Shown piece by piece: positions 2,985 to 34,522 of a stretch of 64,000 nucleotides of DNA (the first letter of the stretch is position 1; each line of letters starts with the position of its first letter). The notes beneath the pieces were generated by a model. It ran no database searches. It had not been told where the DNA came from and was given only the letters and a program-made list of their open reading frames with translations. Source of the DNA: Pandoraea pneumonica (GTDB taxonomy: Bacteria; Pseudomonadota; Gammaproteobacteria; Burkholderiales; Burkholderiaceae). Made by a program: the position numbers and the translations under genes. The stretch spans positions 162,660-226,659 of the forward strand of contig NZ_CABPSK010000007.1 of the NCBI RefSeq assembly GCF_902459645.1, in the 5' to 3' direction.

Positions 2985-3799
2985 GCGCGGCCTCCGATAC
3001 CGAAATCTTCAGCCAGCGGCAACGCAGGGTACTGAAACTTCACCGGGCCGTCCGGTTGTGCATCGATGAACTGACGCACCGTCGGGTCTTGCGACGCCCG
3101 CAACTCCTCGGGCGTGCCTTCCGCCCCGATACGGCCGTCGGTAATGAAATAGATGTAGTCGGCGATAGCGAAAGTCTCGGAGACATCGTGCGACACGATG
3201 ATCGACGTTGCGCCCAACGCATCGTTGAGCTTGCGAATCAGGTTCGCCGTAATCCCCATCGAGATCGGGTCGAGACCGGTGAACGGCTCGTCGTACATGA
3301 CGAGGTCCGGGTCGAGCGCAATCGTGCGCGCCAGTGCGACGCGCCGGGCCATACCGCCCGAAATCTCGGCCGGCTTCATGTCACGCGCGCCACGCAGGCC
3401 GACAGCGTTGAGCTTCATGAGTACCAGATCGCGGATCATCTCTTCGTCGAGACGCGTATGTTCGCGCAGCGGAAACGCCACATTGTCGAACACCGTCATG
3501 TCAGTGAAGAGCGCGCCAAACTGGAACAACATGCCCATGCGGCGGCGCAACTTATACCAGCCGTCGCGATCGAGCGACGACACGTCGGTGCCATCGAAAT
3601 CGACGGTGCCTCGACTGGCATGCACCAGCCCGCCGATCAGGCGCAGCACGGTGGTCTTGCCGCAGCCGGAGCCGCCCATGACCGCAATCACCTTGCCGCG
3701 CGGAAACCGCATATTCAGCCCGGAAAGGACGAGACGTTCGCCATAACCGAAGCTAACGTCGCGCAATTCGAGCAGATTTTCCGTATTCGGGATAGGCAC
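2981..3799 (-). CDS. mlaF: MlaF, ABC ATPase of lipid asymmetry transporter
   Basis: MlaF is the cytoplasmic ATPase driving MlaE. The 272-residue frame starts with GTG at 3799; no in-frame ATG lies before the first strand. Walker A GGSGCGKT is at residues 42-49, the Q-loop follows LFQFGALF, the signature ISGGM is at 146-150, and Walker B LVMYDEP is near 166-172. The ISGGM rather than LSGGQ signature is typical of MlaF/Mkl-type ATPases. It is the first gene of the minus-strand mla operon. Confidence 0.95.
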
Positions 3800-3832
3800 G
3801 TTTCGGGTCTTATAGTGCGGCGCAAAACGCCA

Positions 3833-3861
3833 ATTATAGGGGGGAATGCTGATCGATGCCG
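3833..3861 (-). promoter_or_regulatory. Possible mla operon promoter
   Basis: On the minus strand a perfect TATAAT lies at 3838-3833, about 35 bases before the mlaF GTG. The hexamer 17 bases upstream (CGGCAT) is a poor -35, so the assignment rests on the -10 and its position. The divergent gap 3800-4062 up to the GNAT gene shows nothing else recognisable. Confidence 0.4.
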
Positions 3862-4062
3862 TCCAAGGGGAGGCAGTGACAGGCAGTCCTGGCAGTTGCC
3901 CGCGGGATTTTACAGGCGGCTGGCTCGCCCCGCAGAATCTCGTTCCGATGCGTGTAACGAGGAAAAACGTAACCCTGCCAAGGACTTACGGATCGCCTGA
4001 GCGGCGCGGGTGTTGCGCCGTTGCTACAATATGCCGGTTTGGGCAATAAACCATTGATTGTT

Positions 4063-29248: not shown

Positions 29249-30043
29249 TCAGCGTGTCACCGCGTCACGTGTCTGTGACATGGCTGAGTCCGCAGCATCG
29301 CCGGGTAAAGATTCGTTGGATTCGTTGGATTCGTTGGATTCGATGGATTCGCTGGGTTCGCTGGCTTGCATCGCACCCATTGGGCCGTGTTCGGCATCGC
29401 CCTCTGGGTGACCGGACGCATCACCGTCCTCGCCAACAGTGCCCACCGCGCCGAACTCACCAGCGCCGCCATCGTGCGCATGAGCGTCCTCGTCGTTGGT
29501 CGGCTCGTGGGGCGGTCCGCTCGGCACAATGCCGGCGACTTCCAGTTGCATGAGCACCATGTTGACCAACGCGTTGACGCTCGGCCGACCGGTTTCGATG
29601 ACAAATGTCGCGCACTCTCGATACAACGCGTCGCGCTCCTGAAACAACTGCTCCAGACGAGCACGCGGGTCTGCGGTTTGCAGCAACGGCCGGTTCTTGT
29701 CGCGACGGGTACGCAGCCATAAGTCGTGCGGCGTGGCGCGCAGATAAACGACCGTGCCGCGCGACTTGATGCGCTCGCGGTTTTCCGCGCGCAGCACCGC
29801 GCCCCCGCCGGTGGCGAGAACGATACCGCTGCGTTGTGTGAGTTCGTCGATGGTATGCGCTTCGCGCTGGCGAAAGCCATCTTCGCCTTCGTGCTCGAAG
29901 ATAACCGGGATGCGCACGCCCGTACGCGCTTCGATCTCATGGTCGGAGTCATAGAACTGCCGTCCGAGACGTCGCGCGACAGCGCGTCCGACCGTGGTCT
30001 TGCCCGCCCCCATCAATCCGACAAGTATTACGTTTTCCAGCAT
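29249..30043 (-). CDS. aroK: Shikimate kinase with long acidic C-terminal tail
   Basis: AroK phosphorylates shikimate at the 3-hydroxyl. From the ATG at 30043 the protein has 264 residues against about 175-185 for typical AroK. The kinase core (1-172) shows the P-loop GLMGAGKTT (9-17), the substrate [11 protein letters not shown], the GGGAVLR loop and the lid RRDKNRPLL. Residues 173-264 form an acidic, low-complexity tail rich in Gly, Asp, Glu and His. It contains [14 protein letters not shown] encoded by 9-bp tandem repeats. A TTG start eight codons upstream is possible. The 5' end lies inside the 3' end of the upstream secretin frame (95-base same-strand overlap). Confidence 0.93.
29311..29364 (-). 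repeat. Six 9-bp tandem repeats in the aroK tail
   Basis: Plus-strand units ATTCGTTGG x3, ATTCGATGG, ATTCGCTGG, GTTCGCTGG run back to back from 29311 to 29364. The unit is a multiple of three, so copy-number change would alter tail length without breaking the frame. On the coding strand they specify SNE/SIE-type triplets. Confidence 0.9.
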
Positions 30044-32537
30044 GAATCGCTGATATTTGGGTTCCAATCCCTGATGATACCGGGATATGCGTCGGGCGTG
30101 CGGAACGCGTCGCCTCCAAAGACGCCGCCGTCAGCCTCGGATGGCCTGCCGGCAGGTCGTTGACCGGCACGTCAGGATTAGCCTCCGGGGGCACCGAATG
30201 CCGCCGAAACCCCTCGCCGATGGGCGTCGCGTCTGCGCTTCCCTTTGCTGGCGCAGGGTTGGCGGGTGTCATCTCGGCGTCCACACCGCCGGTCTCCGGT
30301 ACCACGCTCGGGGTGATGAACACCAGCAACTCGGTCCGCCGGTCTTCTCCCGACCGATTTCGGAAAAGCGTCCCGAGCAACGGCACGTCGCCTAGCCAAG
30401 GCACCTGAGCGCGCGAATTACGCCGCTCCTCCTGGTAGATCCCCCCAATCGCCACGGTCCCGCCGTTTTCGACCTGCACCTGTGTCTTAACGTGCCGGGT
30501 GTCCACGGCAAAGCCATCCGCCACGGCATGTCCCACACTGTCCTTGCGCACATCTACGTCGAGAATGACCTGACCGTCGGGGGTAATCAGCGGCGTCACC
30601 TCCAGACGCAGCGTCGCCTTACGAAATTGCACCGTCGATGCGTTACGGCGGTTGCTACGCGCCTGATAGGGCAACTCGGTCCCCTGCTCGATCACCGCCT
30701 CGACCTTGTCCGCCGTCACGATCCTCGGCCGCGACACCACTCGCCCTCGGCCGCTAGTTTCCAGCGCCGACAATTCCAGTTGCAGAAAGCGCGTTGCCGA
30801 GCGCCCAAACAACGTGATGGCCAGACTCGGCGGCGCCACGCCGGCCAGGACTGCGGCGGGTAAAGCGCTCTCGATCACGTCGGCGGCACCGCGTCCCACC
30901 GCATTGGCAGGGGCTGGCGGCTCGCCTCCCGCGGCGTTGCCGCCGCGCCGGGGTGTCGCACCGCCCTCATGCGCATTCGCGCCAGTTGCCGCCTTGCTTC
31001 CTTTGGCGCGCGCGTAGTAGCCCGCGAGACTCACCCCCAGCGATTCGCTGAACCTGTCATCCGCTTCGACGATACGTGCCTCGATCAAGACCTGTCGAAC
31101 CGGCACATCGATGCGTGCAATAAACGCGCTCAGCGCCTCAAGCCGCTCCGGCAAGTCAGTGACGAACAGTTGATTCGTGCGGGGATCGGCGATTAGGCTG
31201 CCGCGCGATGACAACAGCCGTTGTGTTTTTCTGTCCTTTTCGCCGATGATGATCTCGCGCAATTCGAGCGCACGCGGATAATTCAGCGTGAAACGCCGGC
31301 TGACCAGCGGCAGCAGGGTCTCGCGCTTGGACGCCGCTTCCAGTTGGGTCTGCTCGTCGGCAAGCAACTCGGCTCTCGGTGCCACCCAATCCACGCCCCC
31401 TACGGAGCGCACGCCCAACCCGGCTGCCCGTATTAGTACGTCGAATGCCGTCGCTGGCGAGACGTTGGCCATTTCGACCTCAAGCGCGCCGCCAACATGT
31501 TCTCCCACCACCAGATTTCGCCCAGTCAGACGGGCGAAAGCCCGAAGGGCCACGGCCGCTTCTACGCCATGAAGTGCCACGCTAACGGGCGTTTGCGCGA
31601 GCGCCTCGGGAGGGTTTGCCGGGCCATCCCAATCCATCGACGAGGCATTGGCCGTTCGCCTGAACGTGACCCGCCGGCGTCCGGCGCGCATCGTGCCGAT
31701 AGGCTCCGCCGGATCGACGGCCAACGGTTGCTGACCTGCCGCTGCCATCGCGACGGCCGGTGGCCCAGGACGGCCCGACAGCGATGCCCGAAACACATCG
31801 ATCGTAGTCGCGGGCATTTGCCACGGCGGCGCAGCCTCAGGCAAACGAGGCAATGACATCGAATCACTTACCACTGTTGGAACGGCTGCGGGCTGCCAGC
31901 GATGCGCGGTCACCGTCGTCTTTAGCGTTGCTTGCACGCCGCTTGGCACTGGCGCCCCCATTTCCGGCGCCTGCAAGTGCATCCGCTCGATTGTCAGATG
32001 ACGCGGCGCACGATCAATCTCCGCGAGCAGGCCGATCAGATCGGCCACAGCCCCCTTCACTTGGATTTCTGCACGCTCGGTCTCAATACCGGATTTCGAA
32101 CTCGTCTCGCCGGGGCGTGCCGTCTCCAACGCCATGCCACCTCGGGCCACGAGCGATTCCAAGTCGGACCGCCACTTGTCCTCTGGTCCACCCCCGGCAG
32201 CCATTGGCAGAAGGCGCTCCCACGCGACCGTCTCAGCCTCGGCGCTTTGTAGCGTTGCACTCAACTGCGGCAAGCGGCTGGCTTGCACCACTGCACGGTC
32301 CAACGCCGCTTGCGCCGTCTCAGTATCGTGTTTTAGCGACATGCGGACCGGCAGCCCAACAAGCCACCATATCGACCAAGCCAACGTAAAGCCGATCAGC
32401 ACTGCAACTGCGCCGAGCGCTGCGCGCACAGAACTAGGCCACTCCAGCGGTGACACCGAAGTCCATCGATGCCAACGCTCGACCAGATCGGCCAACAGGT
32501 CGCGGACATCGGCTGACGAATGACGCTCATTGGTCAT
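29949..32537 (-). CDS. pilQ: PilO-PilQ fusion: inner-membrane pilus subunit joined to secretin
   Basis: One 862-codon frame combines two pilus-machine parts. Residues 1-30 are cytoplasmic, about 41-62 is a transmembrane helix after the PilO-like LEWPSSVR, 66-115 are helical, and about 120-215 match the PilO ferredoxin-like region. Residues 220-310 are Pro-rich linker with no intact PilP domain. From about 313 the secretin begins: an STN/N0 domain ([20 protein letters not shown]), N1 ([16 protein letters not shown]), a Gly/Ala linker, the secretin barrel (about 569-742) with [14 protein letters not shown], then a 120-residue tail. No secretin signal peptide exists. It overlaps pilN by 11 bases and aroK by 95. 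The locus order pilM-N-O/Q-aroK-aroB is the standard one. Confidence 0.85.
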
Positions 32538-33186
32538 CGAGTGGCTCCTCCTGATCCCACATCTCGTCGGCCGTCAGCGCAGAGGCTGCGGCGGGCCGAT
32601 CCTCGACGCGTAGGGCGAACCGTCGGATGGCTGGCAGTGACGATGGCGGATTGGCCCCCACGAGTTGGTGAGCGACGCCCTCGGGTATCAGGCTTGATTC
32701 GACCTCCGAGACCTTCTTTACCCACGGCAAACTGCGCAATCGCTTCTGCAATTCCCGCACGCGTGATTGCGTTGTCGCGTAACCGTCGACATGCCACTGA
32801 TGGCCATCGAGTTTGACGTCCGCCAGACGTACGCCATCCGCACATGCGCGGATCACGTCGAGTAGATGGCCAGCGACATCTTGCCGTCGGGCCACCAGCG
32901 CAAGCGCCGCCTGACGGTGAGCCCTCATACGCGCCAACGCCCGTTGTGCGACGTCGAACGACACAACCTTCGCATCCAAACGTTGGCGCGCCTCGCGCAG
33001 GGTCAACAACTGCGTTTTCGCGCCACGACGCAGATGCAAATCCCAAACGATCGGGACCAGCGTCAACGACACACCGGCTAGCGCGAGTCCCGCCCACACC
33101 CGCCACTGGCGGCGAAAATCCCGCTGACGGCGCTGCGCGAGCGTAGGCAGCAAATCGACGAGGGGAAGCTTGGGCATCACTGCCAT
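32527..33186 (-). CDS. pilN: PilN-like pilus assembly protein
   Basis: PilN is a bitopic inner-membrane protein that links cytoplasmic PilM to periplasmic PilO. The 219-residue product begins with MPKLPLVDLLP within its first residues, the equivalent of the INLLP motif by which PilN binds PilM. A membrane helix follows (about 30-48) and then a helical periplasmic part with RVRELQKRLRSLPWVKKVSEVESS. Starts at 33186 or 33177 both overlap the pilM stop; the second gives the classic TGATG arrangement. The C-terminal residues 170-219 are extended and acidic. Confidence 0.8.
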   Translation of the reverse strand: MAVMPKLPLVDLLPTLAQRRQRDFRRQWRVWAGLALAGVSLTLVPIVWDLHLRRGAKTQLLTLREARQRLDAKVVSFDVAQRALARMRAHRQAALALVARRQDVAGHLLDVIRACADGVRLADVKLDGHQWHVDGYATTQSRVRELQKRLRSLPWVKKVSEVESSLIPEGVAHQLVGANPPSSLPAIRRFALRVEDRPAAASALTADEMWDQEEPLDDQ

Positions 33187-34256
33187 GAGACCCCCTGCAT
33201 CGACATGGCGCGCAACGCCAAACCGCAAGCCACGGCAAGTGACGTGCGCTCAGCGAAGCGCACTTGTTGATTGGCTGGTCCCTCGGCGGCATCGAATCGT
33301 CTGAGCGGATCAAACGGCTGCGCAGGAATACTGCAAGCCAACGCGAGCGCATCGCATATCGCAGCCAACACCCCCGGCGTTGCCCCTTGCGTCGCCACAT
33401 GCAACGAGCCTGCCACGACCGGCAGTCGGCCAAGCCATTCGCGCACCACACTCGCCAAGGCGTCGGGACTACCGTTCACGCCATCGAAACGCTCGCGCAC
33501 GTCGGCCACGCAGCGATGCGCGTCAAATACCGCCAGATCGAGATCGTGGTCGCTGACCTGGAGCAACGCGATCGGTGACGCGCCCCTCTTGTCCCTCGCC
33601 TCAGATGGATCGCATGAATTTCGCAGACCGGAGTCGCCCGCTGCGGGCCACGCCCACTGAAAGGCTCGACGCCCGGCGGCATGCGCCACGTCGACGGCGT
33701 GCACACGCAGGCCCGCCATTTCCAGCGCGGCAAGGCGGTCGTCCACGAGTTCGGCCTCGCAGGCATATAACCGCAAACGATGGCTCCCCGGCTCAGCCCA
33801 CGTCACGCCGACGCGGGTGCGTGGGCCCGGCCCGCCGTCCCCCGGCAATAGGCGTGCTGCGTGCCGCTCACACCAGGCGTGCAAGGCGCGCACCGGCATA
33901 TCCGGCGGGTAGTCGATCACGTGGGTTTTCAGCAGATGCGCTGGCAAGGCCAGCACCACCGTATCGTCGCGCAGCCCCACCGCACTCGTGCCGACCCGAT
34001 CCAGCAGTTCCCCGAGCCGCCGTGCCGCGGCTTCCGGCCTTGCCAGCAGCCCGCCGCGCAGTACATCGTCCTCAAGCGCCGCCGCACCGTATGCGTCGAG
34101 ACGCAGCTTTGCCGGGCCCGCGACGCGGGTCAGGCGAACAAACTGCAGGGTTCCCCCGTCAAAGTGAATACCGCATCCGCCACCATTCAGGCGCGGAAGA
34201 ACGGCGGCCAAGGGGTGAGACATGTGGCGCAAGCTGCGCAGAACCGCTTCGATCAT
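33177..34256 (-). CDS. pilM: PilM-like actin-fold pilus assembly protein
   Basis: PilM is a cytoplasmic actin-like ATPase that docks on the PilN N-terminus. The ATG at 34256 has a GGGAGG ribosome site seven bases upstream, giving 359 residues. CGIHFDGGTLQFVRL is the PilM phosphate-1-like opening, VVLALPAHLLKTHVIDYPP is the conserved second block, and LQVSDHDLDLAVFD follows. The sequence is more divergent and Arg/Ala-rich than in piliated model species. It is the first gene of the operon, divergent from mrcA. Confidence 0.82.
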   Translation of the reverse strand: MIEAVLRSLRHMSHPLAAVLPRLNGGGCGIHFDGGTLQFVRLTRVAGPAKLRLDAYGAAALEDDVLRGGLLARPEAAARRLGELLDRVGTSAVGLRDDTVVLALPAHLLKTHVIDYPPDMPVRALHAWCERHAARLLPGDGGPGPRTRVGVTWAEPGSHRLRLYACEAELVDDRLAALEMAGLRVHAVDVAHAAGRRAFQWAWPAAGDSGLRNSCDPSEARDKRGASPIALLQVSDHDLDLAVFDAHRCVADVRERFDGVNGSPDALASVVREWLGRLPVVAGSLHVATQGATPGVLAAICDALALACSIPAQPFDPLRRFDAAEGPANQQVRFAERTSLAVACGLALRAMSMQGVSWQ

Positions 34257-34489
34257 GACGTGCCTCCCATGTGGGTCGATGTCGATGCGATCGATCCTAG
34301 CCATCGCTGGCGCGGCGTCCAATCGGACCAATCCGAATCAGGAGGCGATGGCGGCGGTTCGTTTTGCTTTCGGAATCTCTGCCGCTTTTTTCTCGGCTTT
34401 GTCCGAACGCGCATGTTCCCGAAATCCCATTTCGATCATTCCCGGCAAAGGGTTGCGGGACGTTCGGGGGGACATCGCTAACCGTTCGT

Positions 34490-34495
34490 TATAAT
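34490..34495 (+). promoter_or_regulatory. Likely mrcA -10 element
   Basis: A perfect TATAAT lies 28 bases before the mrcA ATG on the plus strand. The region 17 bases upstream is G-rich and gives no good -35, so the promoter may need an activator. The divergent gap 34257-34522 otherwise shows nothing. Confidence 0.45.
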
Positions 34496-34522
34496 CGGCC
34501 CATTGTTTTTTTCGGTTCCCCC

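What the first reader, a model, noticed from the sequence alone, without database searches (positions are those of the whole stretch)
29949..32537. PilO and PilQ fused in one frame, with no PilP and no secretin signal peptide
Seen: a single uninterrupted 862-codon frame with a PilO-like N-terminus (membrane helix about 41-62, periplasmic domain to about 215) and a full secretin from about 313. Between them is a Pro-rich linker with no recognisable PilP. Known: PilO is an inner-membrane protein, PilP is a lipoprotein clamp, and PilQ is an outer-membrane secretin exported with its own signal peptide. Inference: the fused chain would tether the secretin covalently to the inner membrane, replacing the PilP bridge, or would have to be cleaved in the linker. 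Either is a new assembly topology if the pilus works; otherwise the locus may be decaying.
Basis: partly seen in the sequence, partly recalled or inferred. Interest (0 to 1): 0.72.

Follow-up and report, generated by a model that had tools for sequence, protein, structure and literature searches.

The report
One-chain PilO-PilP-PilQ pilus protein in Pandoraea
In most Pandoraea bacteria, three pilus proteins that normally bridge the two cell membranes as separate parts are encoded as one long chain whose middle part has shrunk to a stub, so the outer-membrane pilus pore appears to be made already tied to the inner membrane.

Summary
In detail: one uninterrupted 862-codon frame, on the minus strand, encodes a PilO-type membrane protein and a PilQ secretin without a signal peptide of its own. 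The host is a Pandoraea. It is no read error: 27 of 32 held Pandoraea genomes (the window's included) have the single frame, one has it interrupted by an insertion, three early branches have a separate secretin, one lacks it. The linker is under purifying selection like PilO. 'No PilP' needs correcting: the linker sits where pilP lies in relatives and keeps its DPF-type motif and first strands, so I read it as truncated PilP (likely, not proven). PilO-PilP fusions with separate PilQ occur in other Burkholderiaceae and Janthinobacterium. Of 103 Burkholderiaceae loci read, all 59 fused lie in genomes without PilT over cut-off; 33 of 35 scored separate have PilT, the other two being broken frames; 9 stayed unresolved. 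My prediction that this extends to Janthinobacterium failed (9 of 9 fused genomes keep PilT). Most likely PilO's helix inserts the chain and the secretin reaches the outer membrane still tethered, a covalent bond replacing the PilP clamp; cleavage in the linker is untested. New variant of a known kind.

The parts
29949..32537 (-). fused pilO-pilP'-pilQ gene, 862 codons plus stop
32352..32417 (-). single membrane helix, residues 41-62 (signal anchor of the PilO part)
   Evidence: hydropathy maximum 2.01 at residue 43; helix in model
31896..32183 (-). PilO periplasmic ferredoxin-like domain, residues 119-214
31806..31895 (-). Pro-rich LPxLP..WQMP segment, residues 215-244, like the N-terminal arm of PilP
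   Evidence: alignment; pN/pS 0.42
31626..31805 (-). truncated PilP, residues 245-304: DVFR (PilP DPF) motif and predicted strands 279-285, 288-294, 299-304
   Evidence: hhalign and controls; AlphaFold2 block means 77-87 over model residues 71-100; pN/pS 0.26
31338..31586 (-). secretin N0 domain, residues 318-400
31092..31286 (-). Secretin_N domain, residues 418-482
   Evidence: PF03958 E 6.4e-10
30300..30767 (-). secretin C-domain, residues 591-746
   Evidence: PF00263 E 9.4e-49
29949..30128 (-). 3' end of the frame (residues 804-862 and stop), running into aroK; DNA nearly invariant in the genus
   Evidence: pS 0.035 pooled, column conservation; the frame ends earlier in 2 of 8 named loci
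32527..33228 (-). pilN
   Evidence: PF05137 E 4.6e-6
33177..34331 (-). pilM
   Evidence: PF11104 E 6.5e-10
29249..30043 (-). aroK (shikimate kinase) from the ATG at 30043
   Evidence: PF01202 E 3.9e-52 on the longer frame to 30067

Best explanation
The gene encodes a working, single-chain form of the type IVa pilus alignment-and-gate module. Shown: PilO with its membrane helix, a short conserved segment that is probably truncated PilP, and a PilQ secretin are one frame, conserved in most of the genus. Inferred: the PilO helix inserts the chain in the inner membrane with everything after it in the periplasm, so the secretin needs no signal peptide. The PilP arm stays next to PilO/PilN as in other pili. 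The part of PilP that normally clamps N0 is reduced to a three-strand remnant because a covalent bond now holds PilP to PilQ. The secretin ring then forms in the outer membrane at a fixed one-to-one ratio with PilO, tethered through about 100 residues. I think the uncut tether more likely than cleavage in the linker. The change arose inside Pandoraea after the split from the branch of G077, G101 and G243, in a pilus that has also lost PilT.
For: Single open frame in 27 of 32 Pandoraea genomes; 8 of 8 named loci have it, among them P. capi, anapnoica, anhela, nosoerga, terrigena, communis (some are the same genomes). Two early branches read in full (G077, G101) keep pilO, a lipobox pilP and pilQ as separate genes in the same place; G077's pilQ opens with a signal-peptide-like stretch by eye. 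Linker against PilP profiles: E 0.022, 0.0017, 0.0099, 0.00018; six other segments of the same proteins gave 0.051 or worse in 24 comparisons; 0 of 200 column shuffles as high for each of 3 targets. Motifs run in PilP order. Stub pN/pS 0.26; stub modelled as three strands ahead of N0. Background seen as passages: PilP's unstructured N-terminus binds PilNO and its beta-domain binds PilQ (PMC5805733; PMC4471445).
Against: No protein, pilus or localisation data. The PilP identity rests on position plus a weak profile match: probabilities 2-48%, one target (canonical PilP only) beats the highest shuffle by little (19.2 against 18.8), and without the divergent G014 row scores fall to 19.7, 13.9 and 26.7, the first two within the range that shuffles reached. 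Structure comparison listed no PilP. The fast-evolving junction 305-317 (pN/pS 0.58) would also suit a cleaved spacer. PilT loss is not required for O-P fusion.
Confidence: 0.62

Rival explanations
1. The chain is made as one precursor and cut in the linker after export, giving ordinary PilO plus a free PilQ; the fusion then only sets expression ratio and exports the secretin without its own signal peptide.
For: The junction 305-317 and the 215-244 segment evolve faster (pN/pS 0.58 and 0.42); residues 215-312 are under pLDDT 50 in the 490-residue model.
Against: The stub 245-304 is as constrained as PilO and is modelled as partly folded in the shorter model. No cleavage motif stands out in the alignment by eye, but none was searched for with a tool.
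Confidence: 0.22
2. A decaying pilus locus in which stop codons were lost; the product has no function.
For: One genome, G007, has the frame interrupted by about 1.2 kb; PilT over cut-off is missing in 28 of 31 Pandoraea with the secretin, PF04351 PilP in the fused genomes tried (G000, G014, G010 silent; G005 only E 0.7 elsewhere), PilY1 in 5 of 5 fused genomes tried.
Against: Open in 27 genomes, with pN/pS 0.05-0.27 over the domains; pilM, pilN, pilB-, pilC-, pilD-type genes, a pilin, GspH- and PilW-type minor pilins present.
Confidence: 0.08
3. The linker is an unrelated spacer and PilP was lost entirely; similarity to PilP is convergence of biased sequence.
For: Standard profiles find no PilP; profile probabilities are low and lean partly on one row.
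Against: 0 of 200 shuffles and a far lower score for the reversed alignment, co-linear DPF and VGxMxxGxRxVxL motifs, same position as pilP in close relatives.
Confidence: 0.2
4. PilT loss opened the way to the fusion: without retraction force a separate PilP clamp is no longer needed, so PilP could be truncated and joined.
For: Of 103 Burkholderiaceae loci, all 59 fused are in genomes without PilT over cut-off and 33 of 35 scored separate are in genomes with it. On the 92 rows in the tree the two traits coincide and each needs four changes. In P. aeruginosa pilP/pilT double mutants are piliated at low level (Takhar 2013, as reported in a passage of PMC4471445).
Against: My prediction for Janthinobacterium failed: 9 of 9 genomes with O-P in one frame have PilT. 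Only 2 independent pairs on supported branches; sign test p 0.5. In N. meningitidis PilP stays necessary without PilT (PMC4471445, PMC10191384, passages). A paper reports a PilT gene in Burkholderia terrae (PMC5462819, passage), which sits badly with the pattern unless it is one of the sub-cut-off paralogues.
Confidence: 0.3

Closest known systems
PilO, PilP and PilQ of type IVa pili (P. aeruginosa, N. meningitidis, M. xanthus)
   Same: Gene order M-N-O-P-Q (usual order as stated in a passage of PMC3724824); aroK-aroB follow here and in most relatives read; PilO fold and PilQ N0 match solved structures.
   Different: Three genes are one; PilP has no lipobox and only its first strands; PilQ has no signal peptide and starts at N0.
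PilO-PilP fusions with separate PilQ in genus codes g23, g32, g37, g25, g15 and in Janthinobacterium
   Same: PilP made as the C-terminal part of PilO, no lipoprotein anchor.
   Different: There the frame ends after PilP and PilQ is a separate gene; among the 103 Burkholderiaceae and 72 other loci read only Pandoraea was seen to join it.
GspC of type II secretion
   Same: An inner-membrane bitopic protein whose HR domain, counterpart of PilP, contacts secretin N0 (passages of PMC4471445).
   Different: GspC and GspD are separate chains (recalled).
GspAB fusions of type II secretion (PMC9239104, passage)
   Same: Fusion of two envelope-assembly parts that arose repeatedly.
   Different: The secretin itself is not in the fusion.

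Membership tests
PilQ type IV pilus secretin | TIGR02515 profile over its cut-off | tested here: met
   388.9 bits against 284.35
PilQ type IV pilus secretin | own cleavable signal peptide | tested here: not met
   by hydropathy, no segment ahead of N0 as hydrophobic as the PilO helix; a signal-peptide-like start is seen in the separate relative; no predictor was run
PilO | single N-terminal membrane helix, coiled coil, ferredoxin-like domain | tested here: met
   Pfam PilO itself is below cut-off in the window protein (12.2 of 22 bits), over it in the divergent homologue L017
PilP | lipoprotein signal with lipobox | tested here: not met
   no Cys-bearing signal in the linker rows printed; a permissive lipobox pattern is met in 32 of 33 separate PilP frames of PilT-bearing genomes, not in L218
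PilP | PF04351 profile over cut-off | tested here: not met
   no match in the protein or in G000; the search rings over cut-off in 4 of 14 genomes
PilP | DPF motif followed by first HR strands, between PilO and PilQ | tested here: met
   weak, above the controls, weaker without row L017
PilP | complete HR beta-domain that binds N0 | tested here: not met
   only about three strands fit before N0 begins
type IVa pilus system | assembly ATPase, platform protein, prepilin peptidase, pilins | tested here: met
   own genome: T2SSE E 2e-120, T2SSF E 9e-48, Pilin PF00114 E 1.6e-10, PilW and GspH; pilD-type frame 46% identical to the one of G077 (itself named by eye); PilB model TIGR02538 under its cut-off
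type IVa pilus system | retraction ATPase PilT | tested here: not met
   no match over cut-off in 28 of the 31 Pandoraea genomes with the secretin, G000 included
type IVa pilus system | surface pili observed | not testable with these tools
   needs microscopy

The most novel reading that the evidence does not exclude
A natural pilus machine in which one uncut polypeptide runs from the inner membrane to the outer-membrane secretin ring, fixing PilO to PilQ at one to one and replacing the PilP-N0 clamp by a covalent bond.
Probability: 0.5. Interest if true: 0.8.

Novelty: new variant of a known kind. Interest (0 to 1): 0.62.

Why it matters
How the inner-membrane PilNO ring is linked to the secretin, and in what ratio, is hard to settle by experiment. 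A fusion fixed by nature in most of a genus forces one-to-one symmetry if uncut, and shows that the PilP lipid anchor and most of its N0-binding domain can be dispensed with. It gives a natural test of whether PilP is only a clamp, and of how a pilus without PilT is organised.

Tried and rejected
Rejected: read error (27 genomes of different species share the frame). Rejected: a separate pilP elsewhere in the own genome by PF04351; this profile also stays silent in G228 and G047, so a very diverged copy is not excluded. Rejected: an internal secretin start with a signal peptide. In-frame ATG/GTG columns are shared, one by 27 of 27 (Shine-Dalgarno-like stretch in 2), one by 24 (in 14), one by 15 (in 10), but no linker is as hydrophobic as its helix. 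Failed prediction: O-P fusion without PilT in Janthinobacterium (22 of 72 loci were searched for PilT). Structure comparison listed no PilP; the lists were filled by PilO-like and N0 folds. Rfam found nothing at 29800-34500. The 490-residue model was poor (mean pLDDT 54) and only its two better domains are used.

Rows left out and limits; 9 of 103 loci unresolved (4 of g20, one each of g28, g29, g30, g19, all in PilT-lacking genomes; G243 at a contig edge, PilT-bearing, counted as separate in the tree). Two g32 loci scored separate without PilT (G256, G261) were left out of the tree count as broken frames without a lipobox match; this favours the association. One further row (L061) had no AroK/AroB and is not in the tree. 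PilT absence in genomes that one search does not print is inferred from their not being among its 90 printed matches, taking its 299 genomes to be those; Pandoraea rows are printed. Sub-cut-off PilT-like matches exist in several g23, g32, g37 genomes. G202 has a PilT over cut-off, on another contig among conjugation-type pilus genes named by eye, and its own pil locus is fused. G063 has one at 324.7 bits; its pil locus was not read. The pN/pS pairs were chosen by hand, are not independent and leave out the window's copy.

Full report

Who has it. The genus is Pandoraea (named loci L071-L078; taxonomy). Of 32 held genomes of the genus, 27, the window's own included, have one uninterrupted frame. 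One (G007) has it interrupted by about 1.2 kb carrying a transposase-like frame (judged by eye). Three (G077, G101, G243; 3.6-4.5 Mb) have a separate secretin of 474-477 aa, and one 1.2 Mb genome has no match. In G077 and G101, read in full, pilO (220 and 218 aa) and a 181-aa pilP with a lipobox are separate genes ahead of pilQ; G077's pilQ opens with a signal-peptide-like stretch. In G014, sister of the other fused genomes in the tree, the frame runs on into aroK: PilO, N0, secretin and shikimate kinase profiles fall in one 1043-aa frame.

What the linker is. Across homologues it keeps LPxLP..WQMP, DVFR, and VGSMRAGSRxVxL..ATW (16 of 27 rows printed, consensus over all 27). In the separate relatives PilP reads LPALAELP..DPFF..LIGTLRRGARSVALL. 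Profile comparison with PilP gives E 0.022, 0.0017, 0.0099 and 0.00018 for four target sets, against 0.051 or worse in 24 comparisons of six other segments. 0 of 200 column shuffles reached the observed score for each of three targets; for the set of canonical PilP alone the margin is small (19.2 against 18.8). Without the divergent G014 row the scores drop, for two of three targets into the shuffle range. The 60-residue stub has pN/pS 0.26, the PilO domain 0.27, N0 0.09, the secretin 0.05, the C-tail 0.63, the junction 0.58 (15 hand-picked pairs, pooled, window copy not among them). Modelled with N0 alone, the stub forms three strands with block confidence 77-87. I read it as PilP that lost its lipid anchor and most of the domain that binds N0. 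PilO as N-terminal anchor then exports the secretin.

Wider pattern. In other Burkholderiaceae, PilO and PilP share one frame in 31 of the 103 loci classified: genus codes g23 (10), g32 (8), g37 (7), g15 (5), g25 (1). The PilP match lies near the end of the frame, so PilQ is separate. L057 (g15) carries both PilO and PilP over Pfam cut-offs in one 377-aa frame. All 31, and the 27 Pandoraea frames plus the interrupted one, are in genomes without a PilT-family match over cut-off. Of 35 loci scored separate, 33 are in genomes that have one; the other two (G256, G261) look like broken frames. Nine loci stayed unresolved, eight of them PilT-lacking. Within g15 the five fused loci are the five PilT-lacking genomes among 25 read. 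On an AroK/AroB tree of 102 rows, 92 with both traits, each trait needs four changes; the two independent pairs on supported branches agree, too few for significance (p 0.5). I then wrote down a prediction for Janthinobacterium, where 9 of 72 further named loci have PilO-PilP in one frame. It failed: all 22 genomes searched, those 9 included, have PilT over cut-off. So in this sample no PilT-lacking genome with a readable, intact separate pilP was seen, but fusion does not need PilT loss.

Is the pilus there? The own genome holds a PilB-type ATPase (T2SSE E 2e-120), a PilC-type platform protein (T2SSF E 9e-48) and, after it, a pilD-type frame 46% identical to that of G077; a pilin (PF00114 E 1.6e-10) beside a Wzy/PglL-type protein; and GspH- and PilW-type minor pilins. 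Its third prepilin match lies in a separate PilS/secretin cluster. PilB starts late in its model in the best matches of most genomes, PilT-bearing G077 included. PilY1 was not found in 5 of 5 fused Pandoraea tried, nor in G077 or G101; it was found in G106 and G267. Burkholderia rhizoxinica is already reported to have pil genes without PilT (PMC3102044, passage), and PilT-lacking type IVa systems are discussed in PMC6668835 (passage), so PilT absence itself is not new; a paper on Burkholderia terrae reports PilT present (PMC5462819, passage).

Literature. Four text searches aimed at such a fusion listed 20 of 53, 20 of 29, 12 of 81 and 10 of 524 papers; no title or abstract start shown describes a PilO-PilQ or PilO-PilP fusion. 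Passages were read in PMC3102044, PMC5462819, PMC13170266, PMC5734746, PMC5805733, PMC3724824, PMC10191384, PMC6668835, PMC4471445 and PMC9239104; none was read whole. Subscription journals are mostly not held, so absence from print is not shown.

Verdict. A real, selected fusion carried by most of a genus, which gives the pilus gate a new chain topology. The identity of the linker as PilP is likely, not proven; the uncut tether is my best guess and needs one blot.

Noticed in passing
29949-30128 (minus strand), L001-L040: About 180 bases spanning the 3' end of the fused frame and the start of aroK are nearly invariant across the genus: pooled synonymous differences 0.035 against about 0.3 elsewhere, with high identity also ahead of the aroK ATG. 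No Rfam match. Overlapping coding explains part; a conserved regulatory element is possible.
   Followed up: partly
L017 / L046 (G014): The PilO-PilP'-PilQ frame continues through aroK (1043 aa), so a secretin and shikimate kinase share one reading frame. aroK may start internally.
   Followed up: partly
L053 (G047, 1.9 Mb genome), 3359-3898: A 179-aa frame looks by eye like the start of PilN joined to the C-terminal part of PilP, with no PilO or PilP profile hit in the locus; Pfam finds nothing in it.
   Followed up: no
Pandoraea genomes: Best PilB matches, in frames of about 400-460 aa, mostly begin at about profile position 170-185, so the N-terminal domain of PilB seems missing, PilT-bearing members included.
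   Followed up: no
L018 / L048 (G007): The fused frame is split by about 1.2 kb with a transposase-like frame.
   Followed up: no
L083, L092, L097, L106, L111, L113, L119, L120, L128: Nine Janthinobacterium genomes carry PilO-PilP in one frame with PilQ separate and PilT kept.
   Followed up: yes
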